Source: a bacterium (GTDB taxonomy: Bacteria; UBP14; UBA6098; JAFGQG01). From it: a stretch of 17,739 nucleotides of DNA. A program made the position numbers and the translations under genes. A model generated the notes under the pieces. That model did no database searches, was not told where the DNA came from, and was given only the letters and a program-made list of their open reading frames with translations. The stretch lies in NCBI GenBank assembly GCA_016930435.1, contig JAFGGQ010000169.1:1-17739 (forward strand), written 5' to 3'. Positions 1,986-17,126 of this stretch are shown here, piece after piece (position 1 is the stretch's first letter; every line of letters starts with the position of its first letter).

Positions 1986-3347
1986 TTATTTCATTTTACT
2001 ATTAGGAGACATCCCTTTCGGGTTCACTATTTTAGCAAGTATATCCCGGGCAGAACGCGCCCTCTTCAATGCCTCTTCAAGAAGAACGGATTGCATTTCC
2101 CTCATTTCGTCACTCCAATCAGACCGACTTTTCAGTGTCCAGGGGTACGGAGCTACGGTTTTTTCCTTATTCAAAATGGCAATCTCTTCCCGATAAACCT
2201 TAGCCAGTTTTAGCAAATCCGGGCTCAGATCGCCCATCTCCGGCGCAATATTCTCCAGATACCGGGCAGCATAATTTCGGTCTTCCTTGAGGCGTTCATA
2301 GATCCAGGCGTTAGCCAGGCAGTCCTCAAAATATTTGGCGCTATCCAGCTTGGTGGGATTGAAGGTTTCCAGGTGGCGAATCCACTCCTCGTAAGCCTTT
2401 ATACCCGAAAAATACTTATCATATTTCCCGGTAGTATATAGTTCATAGGCGATTTTCAAGGAACGCCGGTAATTATCCTTGTCGTTTCGCTCCTGTAGTT
2501 TATCCCCCAGTACTACTATTAACCATGGGAATTTCCGGGAAAGATTATATCCCTCGGTTTTATCGTAATAAGTCCGGCATAACAGTTCTTTGCCCCCATC
2601 CTGATAACCTGTGATAACACCCCATTCCGGAACATCGATGAGTTCGATTGCGATCACCGGCATACCATTGTCTATACTGGTCTTAATGATATTCAGAAGT
2701 TCTGTTTCGGAGAGATATATTGGGGCGTTTTCCTCTTCTTCCGATGGCTCTGCAATCCCTGCTTTCATATAGTATGTGGCTTTGTAACCCATAGCTTTTA
2801 TGGCTTCCATTCCGCAATCATAACCGCAGGTAGGATCGGGCGAGCTGGGGCACCAACCATCAAAAAAGTGGAGCCGAAAGGCTGCCCCGGAAACACCCAT
2901 AAGATAAGTGTAATCAACCTTTTCACCCATATAATTAAGTACCCTCAGCAGGGAACCATGAAAGGAATTGGACATCATTAAATCCCAGCCCAATGGCTCT
3001 ATCCCATCTAAAACAACAGCGTCATCCTTTAATTCAATCTCGGGCTCTACCTCAGCCAGCATAACCCCCAGCTTGCCGGCAGGAATTTGCATTGTAAGCT
3101 CCTTGTCCCCACGTAGAACTGTAATGTCCACCTTCTTATTCGGGGTTTTATCCATAATCCCCTTTAAACTCAGGATATTGTTAACCGATATACCGTCATA
3201 CCTTATTATTAAGTCCCCGGCTTTAATACCCGCGTTCTCAGCGTTGGAACCTTTGGTTACCTCGGTTACCTTAATGTAACCCTCCTGAGCTTGCAGATTG
3301 AACAGAGCAAGCAGTATAAAAACCAATAATAAGATTTTTTTGAACAT
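1986..3347 (-). CDS. Secreted PDZ-domain protein with papain-fold-like (BtrH/C39-like) domain
   Basis: A 453-residue exported protein. Residues 1-20 form a signal peptide (KK, hydrophobic core, 'LQA'). Residues about 22-95 are a PDZ domain of the protease/secretion type: 'VTKGSNAENAGIKAGDLI' is the classical carboxylate-loop and helix region. Residues about 120-285 resemble the papain-fold BtrH_N/C39-like group, with 'NSFHGSLLRVLNYMG' (127-141) then 'LMGVSGAAFRLHF' (149-161). However, the position where such enzymes carry the nucleophilic Cys near the N-terminal helix is Ser/Phe/His here, so catalysis is doubtful. Cys166, Cys174 and Cys178 form a small cluster. The remainder is mostly helical and acidic. 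The start is supported by GAGGT six to seven bases upstream of ATG 3347. It is first gene of the uvsE/beta-barrel operon. Function unknown; it may bind peptides or ligands in the periplasm. Confidence 0.8.
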   Translation of the reverse strand: MFKKILLLVFILLALFNLQAQEGYIKVTEVTKGSNAENAGIKAGDLIIRYDGISVNNILSLKGIMDKTPNKKVDITVLRGDKELTMQIPAGKLGVMLAEVEPEIELKDDAVVLDGIEPLGWDLMMSNSFHGSLLRVLNYMGEKVDYTYLMGVSGAAFRLHFFDGWCPSSPDPTCGYDCGMEAIKAMGYKATYYMKAGIAEPSEEEENAPIYLSETELLNIIKTSIDNGMPVIAIELIDVPEWGVITGYQDGGKELLCRTYYDKTEGYNLSRKFPWLIVVLGDKLQERNDKDNYRRSLKIAYELYTTGKYDKYFSGIKAYEEWIRHLETFNPTKLDSAKYFEDCLANAWIYERLKEDRNYAARYLENIAPEMGDLSPDLLKLAKVYREEIAILNKEKTVAPYPWTLKSRSDWSDEMREMQSVLLEEALKRARSARDILAKIVNPKGMSPNSKMK

Positions 3348-3516: not shown

Positions 3517-3557
3517 AAAAAAAACCCCCCTTGTTTCCCGGTAAAGAAACAAGGGGG
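3517..3557 (-). terminator. Intrinsic terminator after the 26-codon gene
   Basis: A perfect 12-bp stem, CCCCCTTGTTTC (3526-3537) with GAAACAAGGGGG (3546-3557), closes an 8-base loop. Reading the minus strand, the stem is followed by eight uridines (A-tract 3517-3524). Stem, loop and tract have the geometry of a strong rho-independent terminator that works only for minus-strand transcription, 26 bases after the stop codon of the small gene. Confidence 0.92.
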
Positions 3558-3582
3558 TAAGTCAAAACCAAAGGATTAACTG

Positions 3583-3663
3583 CTACTTCTTTTTGGGTTT
3601 GGCTTTAGCCGGAGCTGCGGCTTTCTTGGGCGCAGCTTTCTTGGGAGCAGCTTTCTTGGCCAT
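3583..3663 (-). CDS. 26-residue Lys/Ala/Pro-rich basic peptide (histone-tail-like)
   Basis: A very short gene: ATG at 3663, TAG at 3585-3583, 26 residues. After the initiator Met the product contains only Lys, Ala and Pro: 12 Lys, 10 Ala, 3 Pro, with no acidic, aromatic or other residues. It begins 'MAKKAAPKKAAPKKAAAP' and ends 'KPKKK'. The composition and the 'KKAAP' repeat resemble the disordered C-terminal tails of histone H1, Hc1/AlgP-type bacterial proteins and some HU proteins, which bind DNA or RNA non-specifically; here there is no globular domain. It is judged real because AAAGGAG lies eight bases upstream of the ATG, a good promoter lies about 100 bases upstream, and a perfect intrinsic terminator lies 26 bases downstream. 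A nucleic-acid-binding role is inference from charge. A leader peptide is an alternative, but the terminator lies outside the ORF and the next gene has its own promoter. Confidence 0.8.
   Translation of the reverse strand: MAKKAAPKKAAPKKAAAPAKAKPKKK
3610..3657 (-). repeat. Tandem 15-base repeat inside the basic-peptide gene
   Basis: Codons 3-7 (AAGAAAGCTGCTCCC) and 8-12 (AAGAAAGCTGCGCCC) differ at one base. A third copy (codons 13-18) has diverged and gained one alanine codon. Each unit encodes Lys-Lys-Ala-Ala-Pro, which suggests growth by slippage or unequal duplication. Confidence 0.8.
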
Positions 3664-3695
3664 GTTTTTTTCTCCTTTAATAGGGTTACTGGTTT

Positions 3696-3728
3696 TAATC
3701 CAATTTTAGCTTTAAGCAGATTGGATTA
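3696..3728 (-). promoter_or_regulatory. Leader hairpin or operator upstream of the basic-peptide gene
   Basis: A perfect 9-bp inverted repeat, TAATCCAAT (3696-3704) and ATTGGATTA (3720-3728), encloses 15 bases. It lies inside the predicted leader, between the promoter and the Shine-Dalgarno of the 26-codon gene. It could be an RNA stem-loop that shapes translation or stability, or a dyad bound by a regulator. No known riboswitch class is recognised. Confidence 0.5.
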
Positions 3729-3767
3729 GTTTACCCACAAACCTATATCTTATCTTTACTTGACTTA

Positions 3768-3795
3768 ATATTATTGTAAATTGAAAATTTGTCAA
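3768..3795 (-). promoter_or_regulatory. Sigma70-type promoter for the basic-peptide gene
   Basis: Minus strand: a consensus -35 TTGACA (3795-3790), a 16-base spacer and TAATAT (3773-3768) as -10. The predicted start near 3760 gives a leader of about 97 bases containing the 9-bp inverted repeat and ending in a strong Shine-Dalgarno. It is one of the best promoter matches in the window. Confidence 0.55.
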
Positions 3796-9950: not shown

Positions 9951-9980
9951 TTTCATGTGCAAAATATTGGAGGACTCAAG

Positions 9981-11603
9981 ATGGTAAATAGAATCTTTCG
10001 ACCAAAATTTACAATTGAAATTCTACTATTGCTTTTACTTATAACATGGCTGAGGTCCGAACCTTTAAGCACAGGTGAAATAGAAACTGCAGTCACAACC
10101 TGGATTCGTCTGGTTACTCCCAATCCCAAACCTGAGGCAGTAATTGAATTAATGGAGCCTTACCTGGATCAAGGGGACACTCTCGCTTATATTGCTCATA
10201 TAAAGGGAGGGGGATTTTGTTTGTGTGGAACCGACAACATGGTGATGCCAGTCTATCTTTATATATCGGATAGTGAATATAATCCCGAGGTTTACGAACT
10301 GGATTATTTCTTGAATGAAATAGTTGAAAGAACGAAATATATGAGAGCTTGCTCGCAAGATAGCCCGAATGTTATGAACCATTACGCCATTGTGCTTGAA
10401 AAGCGCGAAGAACTTTGGGAGGACCTCTTAGCCAGTAGAGTTCCACGAAGATTATTGGAACGAAGTGCCACGACTGAAGAGCCCGATAGTATGCGTCTTA
10501 AACTAACTACATGTTGGGGGCAACATTCAGTATTCAACGATTCGTGTCCTCCCCAGCCCGTATTTGATCCATCGCCTAAAGAAGAGTGCCCGGCAGGATG
10601 CGTTGCTATTGCACTTGCACAAATTATGAATTACTGGAAATGGCCCCCACGAGGCGTTGGTAGTGGTTCAGTGGACTATGACTTCAGTTTTACTAACGAT
10701 TCAGCTTCCTGGCCCCTTTCATACGATCCAAGTATACCTTGGGGCTGGAAAAACAGTATAAGGTGGCATTCTCCAAATCTATATTTATATAATTATTGGG
10801 ATTCAGCAAAGCTGGAAATAGTATTGGAGGATTCCACCATTTGTTGTGACACATGCGATGCCTGCCGGGAGGCAATTGAACAAGCTTATAATTTGCTGAC
10901 ACCTATAACCATGACTAGCAGTGCAAATTTTAGATCGACCACTTATAGGTGGGACTTATTACGAGATCAAGATAGTCTATATACTACATCTGCAGAAAGT
11001 AGCGCTATTGCTACATTATGCCACCATGCAGGTGTTGCAGCTGAAATGAATTATGGGACTGATGGCTCCGGCACTTCTGACGATGACGCCCGTGATGCCC
11101 TGGTCAATCACTTCAGATATCATAGTGATGCCACAACAAGCCCGGTAATCCTTCCGTATGAGATCCAGATGCAGAGACCTCTCTATTTCAGCGGACAAAA
11201 AACTGAAGGGGGAGGCCATGCATGGGTGATTTATGGATATGATTTACGAACTGAACCAGATATTTTGTACCTGATGAATTTTGGATGGTCCTGTGGTAGC
11301 GATGGTTGGTACACCAGAGATACAATTGATTATTGTGACGACCAAGGTGCCATCGGCACAATTGCTCCCCGAAGAGGATCTAGGTTTGTGGTTGATGAAG
11401 ATATTTATGGCACAGATAATAATGGCTCACCCATTCACCCATATTGGGGAATTGAATCTATCATTGAAGATTCAGATGATATTCTGGCAGGAACCACATT
11501 AATATTCAAAACCAGTAAAACTTTCTCTTTTTCGTCAAGAAGTGCAGTGATTGATTTCCCTGTATTCTTAAAAGGGAGGAATGTTCTTATAAAACATGAA
11601 TAA
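9981..11603 (+). CDS. Secreted C10-family (streptopain-like) cysteine protease
   Basis: A 540-residue exported protease. The start chosen is ATG 9981, with GGAGG seven bases upstream; an in-frame GTG at 9957 would add eight residues and lacks such a site. Residues 1-26 are a signal peptide; about 28-165 look like an inhibitory prodomain. The peptidase domain begins at 'TTCWGQ' (177-181, oxyanion Gln181) and has the nucleophile in 'AGCVAIALAQIMNYWKWP' (Cys207), the catalytic His in 'GGHAWVIYGYD' (His413) and the Trp motif 'MNFGWSCGSDGWY' (432-444). All key residues of family C10 (SpeB, interpain) are present, so it should be active. Cys-rich 'CCDTCDAC' (288-295) may be disulfide-bonded. Residues about 467-538 are a separate module shared with the next gene's product. 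It starts 30 bases after the surface protein; its stop overlaps the next start by eight bases. Confidence 0.9.
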   Translation: MVNRIFRPKFTIEILLLLLLITWLRSEPLSTGEIETAVTTWIRLVTPNPKPEAVIELMEPYLDQGDTLAYIAHIKGGGFCLCGTDNMVMPVYLYISDSEYNPEVYELDYFLNEIVERTKYMRACSQDSPNVMNHYAIVLEKREELWEDLLASRVPRRLLERSATTEEPDSMRLKLTTCWGQHSVFNDSCPPQPVFDPSPKEECPAGCVAIALAQIMNYWKWPPRGVGSGSVDYDFSFTNDSASWPLSYDPSIPWGWKNSIRWHSPNLYLYNYWDSAKLEIVLEDSTICCDTCDACREAIEQAYNLLTPITMTSSANFRSTTYRWDLLRDQDSLYTTSAESSAIATLCHHAGVAAEMNYGTDGSGTSDDDARDALVNHFRYHSDATTSPVILPYEIQMQRPLYFSGQKTEGGGHAWVIYGYDLRTEPDILYLMNFGWSCGSDGWYTRDTIDYCDDQGAIGTIAPRRGSRFVVDEDIYGTDNNGSPIHPYWGIESIIEDSDDILAGTTLIFKTSKTFSFSSRSAVIDFPVFLKGRNVLIKHE

Positions 11604-13765: not shown

Positions 13766-15925
13766 TTAAACCTTCAATTCGACAACGGGTTCAAACCAGT
13801 CCAGCCATACCCGGTCATGGACGAAGAGAAGAACCTGGTAATCATGGCTAAGCTCTATCAGCAAATCCTTCACCAGTGTTAGCCGGTTACGGTCATAATT
13901 AACAAAGGGATCATCCAGAATAAAGGGCAGTTTGCCACTTCCCGAAAGCAGGGCTGCTATCCCCAGCCGAACTGCAAAATAAAGCTGATCCTGGGCGCCA
14001 CTGCTCACCTGCCCAACGGGGATACACGGCAATCCGGGCAGCCTCAAACATGGTTGATAATCTTCCTCTATAGTAACCCCCTGGTAACGATCATGTGTGA
14101 TACGATTGAATACACGGGAAATATTGGATTCCAGGGGACCCATCGAGTGTTCATGAAATTCCTGGATACATTGAGCCAATACTTCCATGGCCAGATAGAG
14201 GGCTTCCTTTCTCCTGGTCAGAAACTGAATTCTATCCTCATTTTGTTCAAGTTGGTCTTCCAGGCTATCCACGCTTTCCCCCGATTCTAATTGAAGCGCC
14301 CGTAATTTCAAAAGCTGCTCATCCCTCTCGGATTTAACCTGACTTATCCTTCCCGCAAGCTGAGAGAGCTCTGATCTTATCTTCAGCCCGTATTGAAGCG
14401 CTGAATTCAGATCAAAGTTGAGCAGAGAGGGATACTTTTTAGATAATTCCATCAGCCTTCTTTTATTGGTCTCCTTATTCAGAAGGATTTGATTGCGTCT
14501 CTTCTGGAGTTCACCGGGATTTGTCAAGTTATCAAGAAGGGTTTTTATTGTCCCTTCTTCGGCCTTAAGGGACTCCATTTCCTTAAGATCATTAAGGGTG
14601 CGGAGCATTCCGGGAGGACTAAGTTTCTCAAGTTCCTTCACCATGGCCGGATCAAACCGGGAGAGCTTTAGACGAACATCCGCTAACTGCTCACCCAGCA
14701 AGGCTGCTTTACCTTCAAGCTTCCTGGTTTCTGCCTGGGCTTTTGAACGGACATGATAGTAATAATATAAAAAGAGGGCAAGGCAAATGAAAAAACCAAT
14801 TGGAAGGGCCAGAAACAGAACTTTGAATACAAGACCCAGCAGAAGGCTCTGTACCATAATCAGGCCCTGAATAATGCCGATCGACCAGGGGTAGGAGGGG
14901 GACTTAATTCCTTCCAAACGCTTCACCATTTCCGCCTTTTGCTGTTCTAATCCCCGGGATTGCTCCAGTAATTCAGCTGTTTCCCTTATTTTTTCATAAT
15001 CATGAATTACAAACTGAGGGTAGTTCTGGGACAAACTGGATTTTTTTTCACGGATGATATCGATTTTAGCCTGGTTGGTTTTTATCTTATCCATCTCACT
15101 TTCTACACGGTCAAACTGCTCGGTGAGCTCCTTTTCCTCTTTTTTGAGCTGGGAAAACTCAGAGATATCTTCGTTGCCCTTTGATTGGGTTTCAAATTCG
15201 GCTTCTAATTTAGCGAGGGTAGCTTCCAGGTTATTTATTTCGATTTCCAGGACAGCGCTTTGTTTATAATGTTCCCGGGCCACGGCAAGCTTTTCCTTTA
15301 GCGCTGCAGATTCATCACGGGCCAATTCCAGGGGCCGGGGTTTACTCTTATTTTTCCCATCAGGATTAATCTGTGTGATTTTGTAATAATCATCTTCCAG
15401 ACCCTCGTATATCTTGATATAGTCGGATTCGGTAGCACCGGAGATTAGTTCCCGAACCTGAGGGGAAATGCTGGTTTGGACCTGCCGTTGGTCTATATAA
15501 GTCACGCTCTTGAACACGGATTCGCTGGAGATACCCAGTATCTGGTCCAGTACCCTGGTATAATGCTGAACGGATTCCGTATGGGATTGCGGAGTGATCT
15601 TGTCATCAAAAAGAATTTCCTCATCCTTCCCGGAAAGCAAGATTACGCTGGTCTGGTTTGTCGAAAAATCCCGTCTGAACAGAAAATCCTGTTGGTCCTT
15701 TTCGATCAATATTTCAGAGCCGAAGAGGGAATAATCATCCCAGGGTTCCCAGTTCCGCCGCGCCTTAGCCTCCAGCCCAAACAGGGTAGCCCGGAGAGCG
15801 GTCATAAGGGTGGATTTTCCGCTCTCATTATTACCTATAAAAAGATTGAAGCCTGGATTCAAGCCAAGCTCCAAACCCTTGTTGAATTTTCCGAATCCGG
15901 ATATTTTCAAGCGCTTTATATACAT
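13766..15925 (-). CDS. yhaN: YhaN-like SMC/Rad50-type ATPase with membrane-spanning hairpin
   Basis: A 719-residue ABC-type ATPase of the SbcC/Rad50/YhaN group. Walker A is 'GNNESGKST' (31-39) with the Q-loop near Gln146-149 ('YIDQRQVQ'). Coiled-coil arms (about 200-340 and 395-595) are Glu/Lys/Leu-rich. The ABC signature 'SSGAQDQL' (641-648), Walker B 'LPFILDDP' (666-673), D-loop 'VNYD' and switch His703 ('VLLFVHDR') complete the head. The arms meet not in a zinc hook but in two hydrophobic segments (about 346-363 and 366-390). This is the hallmark by which YhaN differs from SbcC and suggests that the coil apex is anchored in the inner membrane. It is shorter than the roughly 960-residue Bacillus protein (from memory). 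The start codon shares one base with the stop of yhaO (TAATG), so the pair is coupled and likely forms a nuclease-ATPase complex on DNA ends. Confidence 0.9.
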   Translation of the reverse strand: MYIKRLKISGFGKFNKGLELGLNPGFNLFIGNNESGKSTLMTALRATLFGLEAKARRNWEPWDDYSLFGSEILIEKDQQDFLFRRDFSTNQTSVILLSGKDEEILFDDKITPQSHTESVQHYTRVLDQILGISSESVFKSVTYIDQRQVQTSISPQVRELISGATESDYIKIYEGLEDDYYKITQINPDGKNKSKPRPLELARDESAALKEKLAVAREHYKQSAVLEIEINNLEATLAKLEAEFETQSKGNEDISEFSQLKKEEKELTEQFDRVESEMDKIKTNQAKIDIIREKKSSLSQNYPQFVIHDYEKIRETAELLEQSRGLEQQKAEMVKRLEGIKSPSYPWSIGIIQGLIMVQSLLLGLVFKVLFLALPIGFFICLALFLYYYYHVRSKAQAETRKLEGKAALLGEQLADVRLKLSRFDPAMVKELEKLSPPGMLRTLNDLKEMESLKAEEGTIKTLLDNLTNPGELQKRRNQILLNKETNKRRLMELSKKYPSLLNFDLNSALQYGLKIRSELSQLAGRISQVKSERDEQLLKLRALQLESGESVDSLEDQLEQNEDRIQFLTRRKEALYLAMEVLAQCIQEFHEHSMGPLESNISRVFNRITHDRYQGVTIEEDYQPCLRLPGLPCIPVGQVSSGAQDQLYFAVRLGIAALLSGSGKLPFILDDPFVNYDRNRLTLVKDLLIELSHDYQVLLFVHDRVWLDWFEPVVELKV

Positions 15926-17049
15926 TATTCTTGTTTGTTTTGAAATTTGATCAGGGTCAGTTTGAGGGCTTCCTGGATGAGTGCACGGGTTTTATCGGAA
16001 GGAGCTACCTGAAAACGCCGGAGCATCTCCCTCACAAAATTACCCCGTATGGTACGTTCCTCCTTCAATGAGTCCAGGAAACTGCTGTCATAGATCTGGC
16101 TTTCATCGATGATTTCAATGTATGAGAAAAGGGCTCTTAAACTGCCAGCGATCTTGTCCAGATCAAACAACTGCCCGGCGACACCTTTCAGGCGTATTCT
16201 CAGGATTTGAGTATTCATGTGCTTATTTTGAATATGATCCACCAGTTGATCCTCGCTTTCAAATGGATATTGCTGGAGATCTAAATTTGCTTCGCCGATG
16301 ATCCTGGCTTTTACCGGGATCTTCTGAACCTGAGGCCTGGAGCCATGAAAATCCACAACGGCCATGTAACGAGGTCCATTCTCCCCGAATTTCATTCCCT
16401 GCAGGGTGCCCGGATAGACCACTTTTACCCCGTTAGCATCATATTCCGCAAAATTGTGGTAATGACCCATGGCAACATAATCCATTCCGGAATCCTTTAA
16501 CCTTTCCAGGCTGATGGGTAGATCCTGCTTGCGGATCTTCCATTCCGGGTTCCCTTCGATCGAGCCATGAAGCAGGGCGATATGGATACCCTCCGCAGAG
16601 CACCTCTTTAATCCTGCGAAAGGATTTCTGGTCCGGACGGAATCATAAGCCATCCCGTAAAAGAAAAGCTGCTGGTCCTGATGATCGATCCGCAGAGGCT
16701 CGGTAAAAGCAGGTTGGGTTATAATATGTATGCCGGGAAGTGATTCCCTTTTATAAACACACCCGGGATAACCGAACCCATCGTGAGTGCCGGGGATAAG
16801 AACTACCAGCCGGCCACTGTCGGTAAGCGATTTCAGGTGAGTACGGGCAAAACCAGCCAGATCCGGTGGAGGGGCATAAGTATGAAAGAGGTCGCCGCAG
16901 ATCAATATTATTTGAACATCATTGGAAGGCTCCAGAGCATATCTGACCGCTTCACCGAAAGCCTTTGTGAAATCGGCCGACTCTAATCTCAGGTTCGGGT
17001 TCGAATAGCCCAGGTGAAGATCTGATAAATGCAGTAATCGAATAGCCAT
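15925..17049 (-). CDS. yhaO: YhaO-like DNA repair exonuclease (SbcD/Mre11-type metallophosphoesterase)
   Basis: A 374-residue cytoplasmic nuclease. Calcineurin-like phosphoesterase motifs appear in order: 'LSDLHLGY' (8-15; Asp10, His12), 'ICGDLFHT' (50-57; Asp53), 'IPGTHDG' (85-91; His89), 'LLHGS' (159-163; His161) and 'MGHYHNF' (194-200; His196, His198). The third motif is GTHD, not the usual GNHD. The C-terminal part (about 240-374) is the capping and ATPase-binding region. I chose ATG 17049 because 'MAIRLLHLSDLHLG' is where family members begin. The longer option at 17100 adds 17 residues with no family match, has no Shine-Dalgarno, and would place the start codon in the candidate promoter's -10. 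First gene of the yhaO-yhaN operon. The partner ATPase follows directly with a one-base overlap. Confidence 0.9.
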   Translation of the reverse strand: MAIRLLHLSDLHLGYSNPNLRLESADFTKAFGEAVRYALEPSNDVQIILICGDLFHTYAPPPDLAGFARTHLKSLTDSGRLVVLIPGTHDGFGYPGCVYKRESLPGIHIITQPAFTEPLRIDHQDQQLFFYGMAYDSVRTRNPFAGLKRCSAEGIHIALLHGSIEGNPEWKIRKQDLPISLERLKDSGMDYVAMGHYHNFAEYDANGVKVVYPGTLQGMKFGENGPRYMAVVDFHGSRPQVQKIPVKARIIGEANLDLQQYPFESEDQLVDHIQNKHMNTQILRIRLKGVAGQLFDLDKIAGSLRALFSYIEIIDESQIYDSSFLDSLKEERTIRGNFVREMLRRFQVAPSDKTRALIQEALKLTLIKFQNKQE

Positions 17050-17095
17050 TTCAAATATTTCCCATTTAAACGGATGTTTTTTGAATGTAGTATTA

Positions 17096-17126
17096 ATCAT
17101 AAAGGGATAATTTCATTAAAAGTCAA
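17096..17126 (-). promoter_or_regulatory. Candidate promoter of yhaO-yhaN
   Basis: Minus strand: TTGACT (17126-17121), then TATGAT (17101-17096) at a longer than ideal 19-base spacing. It would start transcription near 17089, about 40 bases before the chosen ATG at 17049. The spacer begins with the 13-mer CTTTTAATGAAAT, which also follows the -35 of the opposing promoter at 17358. Confidence 0.3.

What the first reader, a model, noticed from the sequence alone, without database searches (positions are those of the whole stretch)
3517..3795. Complete miniature transcription unit for a 26-residue peptide made only of Lys, Ala and Pro
Seen directly: consensus -35 (TTGACA) and a good -10, a leader with a 9-bp inverted repeat, AAAGGAG at proper spacing, 26 codons encoding Met plus 12 Lys, 10 Ala and 3 Pro, and then a perfect 12-bp terminator with eight U. 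Genes this short are normally missed by annotation. All signals agree on the same strand, so chance is unlikely. By composition it is a free-standing histone-H1-like tail without any globular domain; a role in nucleoid, RNA or polyanion binding is inference.
Basis: partly seen in the sequence, partly recalled or inferred. Interest (0 to 1): 0.8.

Follow-up and report, generated by a model that had tools for sequence, protein, structure and literature searches.

The report
Tiny free-standing histone-H1-like tail peptide gene
A bacterium of an uncultured phylum (apparently UBP14) carries a complete little gene for a 26-amino-acid, strongly positive peptide made of lysine, alanine and proline; relatives keep the peptide but not the surrounding DNA, so it is probably a real DNA- or polyanion-binding micro-protein that resembles a histone H1 tail with nothing attached.

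Summary
On the minus strand there is a TTGACA/TAATAT promoter-like site, a leader with a 9-bp inverted repeat, AAAGGAG, a 26-codon ORF (MAKKAAPKKAAPKKAAAPAKAKPKKK) and a strong intrinsic terminator. The composition is 11 Lys, 10 Ala and 4 Pro, not 12/10/3. The ORF is a gene, not a chance frame in a small RNA. The other held genome of the family has MAKKAAPKKAAPKKAAPKKAAKKKK, with 11 synonymous and 0 amino-acid changes over 16 aligned codons. A third genome of the class (UBA6098, phylum UBP14) has MAKKAAPKKEAAPAKGQKETPKKKG. All three have a Shine-Dalgarno and their own terminator; the terminators are unrelated in sequence and the neighbours differ. Start-anchored tiny KAP peptides turned up in 3 of 17 phylum genomes and 0 of 369 others, so the family is patchy and not a core (e.g. 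ribosomal) protein. Elsewhere the same segment occurs as longer free proteins (55-113 aa) and fused to HU at either end; the HUs found in the three peptide-bearing genomes have no tail. Best explanation: a single-domain, H1-CTD-like peptide binding DNA or another polyanion in trans. Free-standing H1 tails are known (Hc2, BpH1, trypanosome H1); this is an unusually short variant. Its function is untested.

The parts
3767..3795 (-). sigma-70-type promoter-like site: TTGACA (3795-3790), 16-nt spacer, TAATAT (3773-3768); an overlapping reading is a 17-nt spacer with AATATT
   Evidence: consensus match only
3696..3728 (-). leader hairpin, 9-bp inverted repeat TAATCCAAT/ATTGGATTA
   Evidence: no counterpart seen in G004, and the leader lies beyond the contig end in G001, so not shown to be conserved
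3672..3678 (-). Shine-Dalgarno AAAGGAG, 8 nt before the start codon, mostly unpaired in the predicted fold
   Evidence: a GGAG also precedes the ORF in G001 and G004
3583..3663 (-). ORF of 26 codons plus TAG: MAKKAAPKKAAPKKAAAPAKAKPKKK (11 K, 10 A, 4 P), KAP peptide
   Evidence: homologues in G001 and G004; 11 synonymous and 0 non-synonymous changes over 16 codons against G001
3517..3557 (-). intrinsic terminator, 14-bp stem (-23.4 kcal/mol) and 8 U
   Evidence: terminators of unrelated sequence also follow the ORF in G001 and G004

Best explanation
The unit is a genuine single-gene operon for a micro-protein: a 26-residue, intrinsically disordered, (KKAAP)-repeat polycation (calculated charge about +10.5, pI about 11) equivalent to a histone-H1 C-terminal tail without any globular domain. 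It most likely works by electrostatic, sequence-independent binding to DNA, screening charge and helping to condense or bridge the nucleoid, as the KAP tails fused to HU or AlgP are thought to do. In the three peptide-bearing genomes the HU-type proteins found lack such tails, so the peptide may supply the tail function in trans. Shown here: the gene signals, the peptide-level conservation, the free-standing state, the tail-less HUs, and the existence of the same segment fused to HU elsewhere. Inferred: expression, DNA as the ligand rather than RNA or polyphosphate, and the in-trans partnership.
For: Signals complete and non-random. Peptide kept in two other genera of the class with Shine-Dalgarno and terminator; all 11 differences to G001 over 16 codons are synonymous. 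In 386 genomes the start-anchored pattern SD + MAKKAA found a tiny KAP peptide only in 3 of 17 phylum genomes, and the reversed control pattern found 0 matches in all 386; the other hits are ordinary proteins or chance frames (Fisher p = 7e-5). The same MAKKAAPKK segment occurs as longer free KAP proteins (55-113 aa) in other phyla and fused to HU at the C terminus (L028) or N terminus (L033, L036, L052, L030). HUs found in G000, G001 and G004 are tail-less. Literature: (AAKP)n peptides alone bind DNA (Medvedkin 1995, cited in PMC9239181); H1 proteins consisting only of a KAP domain compact chromatin in T. brucei and exist in eubacteria (PMC3486875).
Against: No expression or binding data. Found in only 3 of 17 genomes of the phylum by start-anchored patterns, so dispensable in the lineage. 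A 26-residue tail with no second binding domain may bind DNA weakly at physiological salt, and no partner was identified. Low-complexity sequences evolve convergently, so common descent of the three copies, beyond the G000/G001 pair, is likely but not proven. Neighbouring genes differ in all three and give no functional clue.
Confidence: 0.55

Rival explanations
1. It is a real peptide, but its main ligand is another polyanion: polyphosphate granules, with which AlgP associates and whose spacing needs AlgP's KPAA tail, or mRNA/rRNA, acting as a counter-ion or granule-spacing factor.
For: AlgP, with the same kind of tail, localises to polyP granules and needs the tail for their spacing (PMC9239181). 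A pure polycation has no built-in preference for DNA.
Against: No recognisable polyP gene lies next to any of the three copies; presence of polyphosphate kinases elsewhere in the genome was not tested.
Confidence: 0.25
2. It is a tiny basic ribosomal protein, like bTHX (26-27 residues), bL37 or bS22.
For: Same size and charge class; MAKK start; strong single-gene expression signals.
Against: Found in only 3 of 17 genomes of the phylum; no match to Thx PF17070 in any of the 17; no arginines; repetitive with a variable C-terminal half, unlike rRNA-docking peptides; no PDB chain (including ribosomal ones) matched (weak for low-complexity queries).
Confidence: 0.06
3. It is a small RNA or lysine-attenuation leader and the peptide itself does not matter.
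For: Short leader with hairpin, Lys-rich ORF and terminator resemble an attenuator or sRNA; the whole RNA folds better than shuffles (z -3.71).
Against: Only synonymous changes across genera; terminator sequences unrelated; in G001 the next gene downstream is convergent, so there is nothing to attenuate; a terminator at the end of any gene lowers the folding energy.
Confidence: 0.07
4. It is a recently detached or decaying tail of a larger gene with no selected function.
For: The same segment is fused to HU in other bacteria.
Against: Shine-Dalgarno, start and terminator in three genera; purifying selection against G001; no KAP-tailed protein detected elsewhere in G000.
Confidence: 0.07

Closest known systems
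Single-domain histone H1-like proteins of eubacteria (Hc2/HctB of Chlamydia, BpH1 of Bordetella)
   Same: Free-standing, built of lysine-rich pentamers, variable repeat number, no globular domain
   Different: About 150-237 residues rather than 26; the Pfam HC2 profile does not recognise the peptide
Kinetoplastid (T. brucei) histone H1
   Same: H1 reduced to a Lys/Ala/Pro-rich domain; residues 6-20 AAPKKAVAKKAAPKK nearly match
   Different: Eukaryotic, longer (residue numbers reach at least 73), acts on nucleosomal chromatin
KAP/KPAA tails of AlgP, PhaF and tailed HU proteins
   Same: Same composition and repeats; bind DNA in vitro; HU fusions carry the identical MAKKAAPKK segment
   Different: Tails of a folded protein, whereas here the tail is a whole gene product
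Tiny basic ribosomal proteins (bTHX, bL37, bS22)
   Same: Size and charge
   Different: Different sequence; Thx absent from the phylum by PF17070; KAP peptide patchy in the phylum

Membership tests
Single-domain histone H1-like (H1-CTD-like) proteins | Composition dominated by Lys, Ala, Pro with short repeats | tested here: met
   25 of 25 residues after Met are K/A/P; KKAAP repeats
Single-domain histone H1-like (H1-CTD-like) proteins | No globular domain; free-standing gene | tested here: met
   Own promoter-like site, Shine-Dalgarno, stop and terminator; same free-standing state in two relatives
Single-domain histone H1-like (H1-CTD-like) proteins | DNA binding / nucleoid compaction | not testable with these tools
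   Inferred from AAKP-peptide literature
Hc2 (Pfam PF07382) | Profile match above cut-off | tested here: not met
   No Pfam family matches P0001 at E <= 0.01; a profile test is weak for a 26-residue low-complexity query
bTHX ribosomal protein (PF17070) | Profile match, and presence throughout the lineage as expected of a core ribosomal protein | tested here: not met
   0 of 17 genomes match PF17070; the KAP peptide was found in 3 of 17
Transcription-attenuation leader peptide | Regulated gene downstream in the same direction, kept with the leader | tested here: not met
   The next gene in G001 is convergent
HU with KAP tail | Fusion to an HU fold | tested here: not met
   ORF stands alone; HUs found in G000 are separate 90-91 aa proteins without tails

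The most novel reading that the evidence does not exclude
A split chromatin protein: bacteria of this lineage have separated the H1-like tail from HU and express it as an independent 25-26-residue peptide, so that nucleoid compaction can be tuned by tail dosage in trans. This would be among the smallest nucleoid-associated proteins known.
Probability: 0.25. Interest if true: 0.65.

Novelty: new variant of a known kind. Interest (0 to 1): 0.45.

Why it matters
Genes of 26 codons are usually missed by annotation, and low-complexity filters hide polycationic peptides in homology searches, so a class of free-standing H1-like tails may be overlooked across prokaryotes. If this one binds DNA, it shows how little protein is needed for an H1-like function and offers a minimal natural test of what an H1 tail does without a folded domain. 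It also bears on the proposal that H1 tails are of bacterial origin.

Tried and rejected
(1) RNA family: no Rfam match in the window. (2) Attenuator / leader peptide: rejected by the convergent downstream gene in G001. (3) bTHX: not in the phylum by PF17070. (4) Phage origin: viral contigs with MAKKAAPKK encode other proteins of 43-286 aa, none a tiny KAP-only peptide. (5) Synteny: the PDZ-protein orthologue in G001 (52% identity) has a 264-aa ORF, not the peptide, upstream; the 70-aa ORF next to the G004 copy has no relatives in the other six genomes searched. (6) Variant starts M[ASTP]KK[ASTP] and M[ASTP][ASTP]KK[ASTP] after GGAG gave no further tiny KAP peptide in the phylum. (7) The apparent match of the promoter region in G001:C38 lies upstream of a thiE-like ORF in AT-rich DNA and was judged chance. 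(8) Pfam, NCBIfam and PDB sequence searches with the peptide gave nothing. (9) For the Phycisphaerales and archaeal hits, identity of the first nine residues is by construction of the pattern and was not counted as evidence.

Full report
WHAT IS THERE. The minus strand carries, in order: TTGACA (3795-3790) and TAATAT (3773-3768), a leader with a 9-bp inverted repeat (3728-3720 / 3704-3696), AAAGGAG (3678-3672), a 26-codon ORF (3663-3583) and a terminator (stem 3557-3526, then 8 T). A Lys/Ala/Pro-only run of 25 codons compares with a maximum of 8 in 200 triplet shuffles, and a terminator this good appears in 0 of 100 Markov-random windows. The promoter alone would not convince, since such matches are frequent in this AT-rich stretch.

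WHERE IT LIVES. The window is contig C40 of a 2.85-Mb, 90%-complete assembly. One genome of the same class holds its copy on a 137,707-base contig that equals DIWU01000015.1, bacterium UBP14_UBA6098; the other genome of the family has its copy on a 9,987-base contig that equals JAFGQG010000003.1, from Zod_Metabat.733. The organism is therefore taken to belong to candidate phylum UBP14; this rests on matching contig lengths and peptides and on kinship, not on a stated name. UBP14 is reported from Zodletone spring (PMC9040765).

IS IT A GENE. G001 (same family, other genus) encodes MAKKAAPKKAAPKKAAPKKAAKKKK, and G004 (UBA6098) encodes MAKKAAPKKEAAPAKGQKETPKKKG; each has GGAG before the start and a terminator after the stop. 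Over the 16 aligned codons of G000 and G001 there are 11 synonymous and no non-synonymous differences; if differences fell evenly over the three codon positions this would have a probability of about 2e-7. The G001 copy was first found by DNA similarity, so bias from selecting on protein identity is limited, although the repeats make the alignment partly self-fulfilling. The three terminators share no sequence. The neighbours differ: in G001 the next gene downstream is convergent, and the orthologue of the window's PDZ protein sits elsewhere without the peptide. The peptide is what is conserved.

HOW COMMON. A start-anchored pattern (GGAG, spacer, MAKKAA) matched 11 of 386 genomes. Three are the UBP14 micro-proteins; the other eight encode ordinary proteins (uS11, GroES, pyruvate phosphate dikinase and others, recognised by eye, not by a profile search) or chance frames. 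That is 3 of 17 in the phylum against 0 of 369 outside (p = 7e-5). Looser start patterns found no more in the phylum, so the family is patchy. These patterns need an SD and particular N-termini, so absence is not proven. In the collection of 84,980 species genomes, the DNA pattern for MAKKAAPKK occurs in 45 stretches. Among them are further tiny free-standing peptides (Phycisphaerales, 24 aa; a record titled Thermoplasmata archaeon, 26 aa; Lokiarchaeota and Simkania, 37 aa), longer free KAP proteins (55-113 aa), and HU proteins carrying the segment at the N terminus (L030, L033, L036, L052) or C terminus (L028).

HOW IT MOST LIKELY WORKS. A 2.66-kDa polycation with calculated charge about +10.5 and no hydrophobic residue apart from Ala, Pro and Met is not expected to fold on its own and should bind polyanions electrostatically (inference). 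Literature on this sequence type points to DNA: (AAKP)n peptides bind DNA in vitro (Medvedkin 1995, cited in PMC9239181), AlgP and PhaF have KPAA tails thought to act on the nucleoid and on granules, and trypanosome H1 is nothing but such a domain yet supports higher-order chromatin (PMC3486875). The HU proteins found in the three peptide-bearing genomes have no tail, whereas in other bacteria the same segment is part of HU. I therefore favour a tail acting in trans on the nucleoid, with RNA or polyphosphate binding as the main rival. None of this binding was tested.

CLASSIFICATION. By composition and single-domain layout the peptide meets the descriptive definition of single-domain H1-like proteins. 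It does not match the Pfam HC2 profile, and function is untested, so 'H1-like' is a statement of kind and not of descent. What is new is the extreme shortness, the dedicated single-gene unit and the conservation in a little-studied phylum. A full-text search for KKAAPKK found only four papers, none on a bacterial micro-protein of this kind by title; the library is partial, so this is weak evidence that it is undescribed.

Noticed in passing
L022 (CP070751.1), minus strand, ORF start near locus position 915: A 26-aa free peptide MAKKAAPKKTTKKTTKPKGKAKGKKK with a strong Shine-Dalgarno in a 5.16-Mb record titled Thermoplasmata archaeon; large for that group and the upstream region has bacterial-looking hexamers, so the taxonomic label deserves a check.
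   Followed up: partly
L058:3076-3186: A Lokiarchaeota contig encodes a free 37-aa peptide of KKKAPAKKAGP repeats followed by T-rich stretches: a possible H1-tail-like micro-protein in an Asgard archaeon.
   Followed up: no
L033, L036, L052: Spongiibacteraceae and Litorivivens HU-family proteins carry long N-terminal KAP extensions (Bac_DNA_binding match begins at residue 55-67).
   Followed up: partly
window 13766-17100: Adjacent, overlapping genes for a Rad50/SbcC-like ATPase (719 aa) and an Mre11/SbcD-like nuclease (391 aa).
   Followed up: no
window 9957-11603: Peptidase C10 (streptopain-type) family protein of 548 aa downstream of a 1172-aa protein without a Pfam match.
   Followed up: no
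window 1986-3347: PDZ-domain protein of 453 aa with a 52%-identical orthologue in the related genome G001; only its N-terminal PDZ domain is recognised by Pfam.
   Followed up: partly
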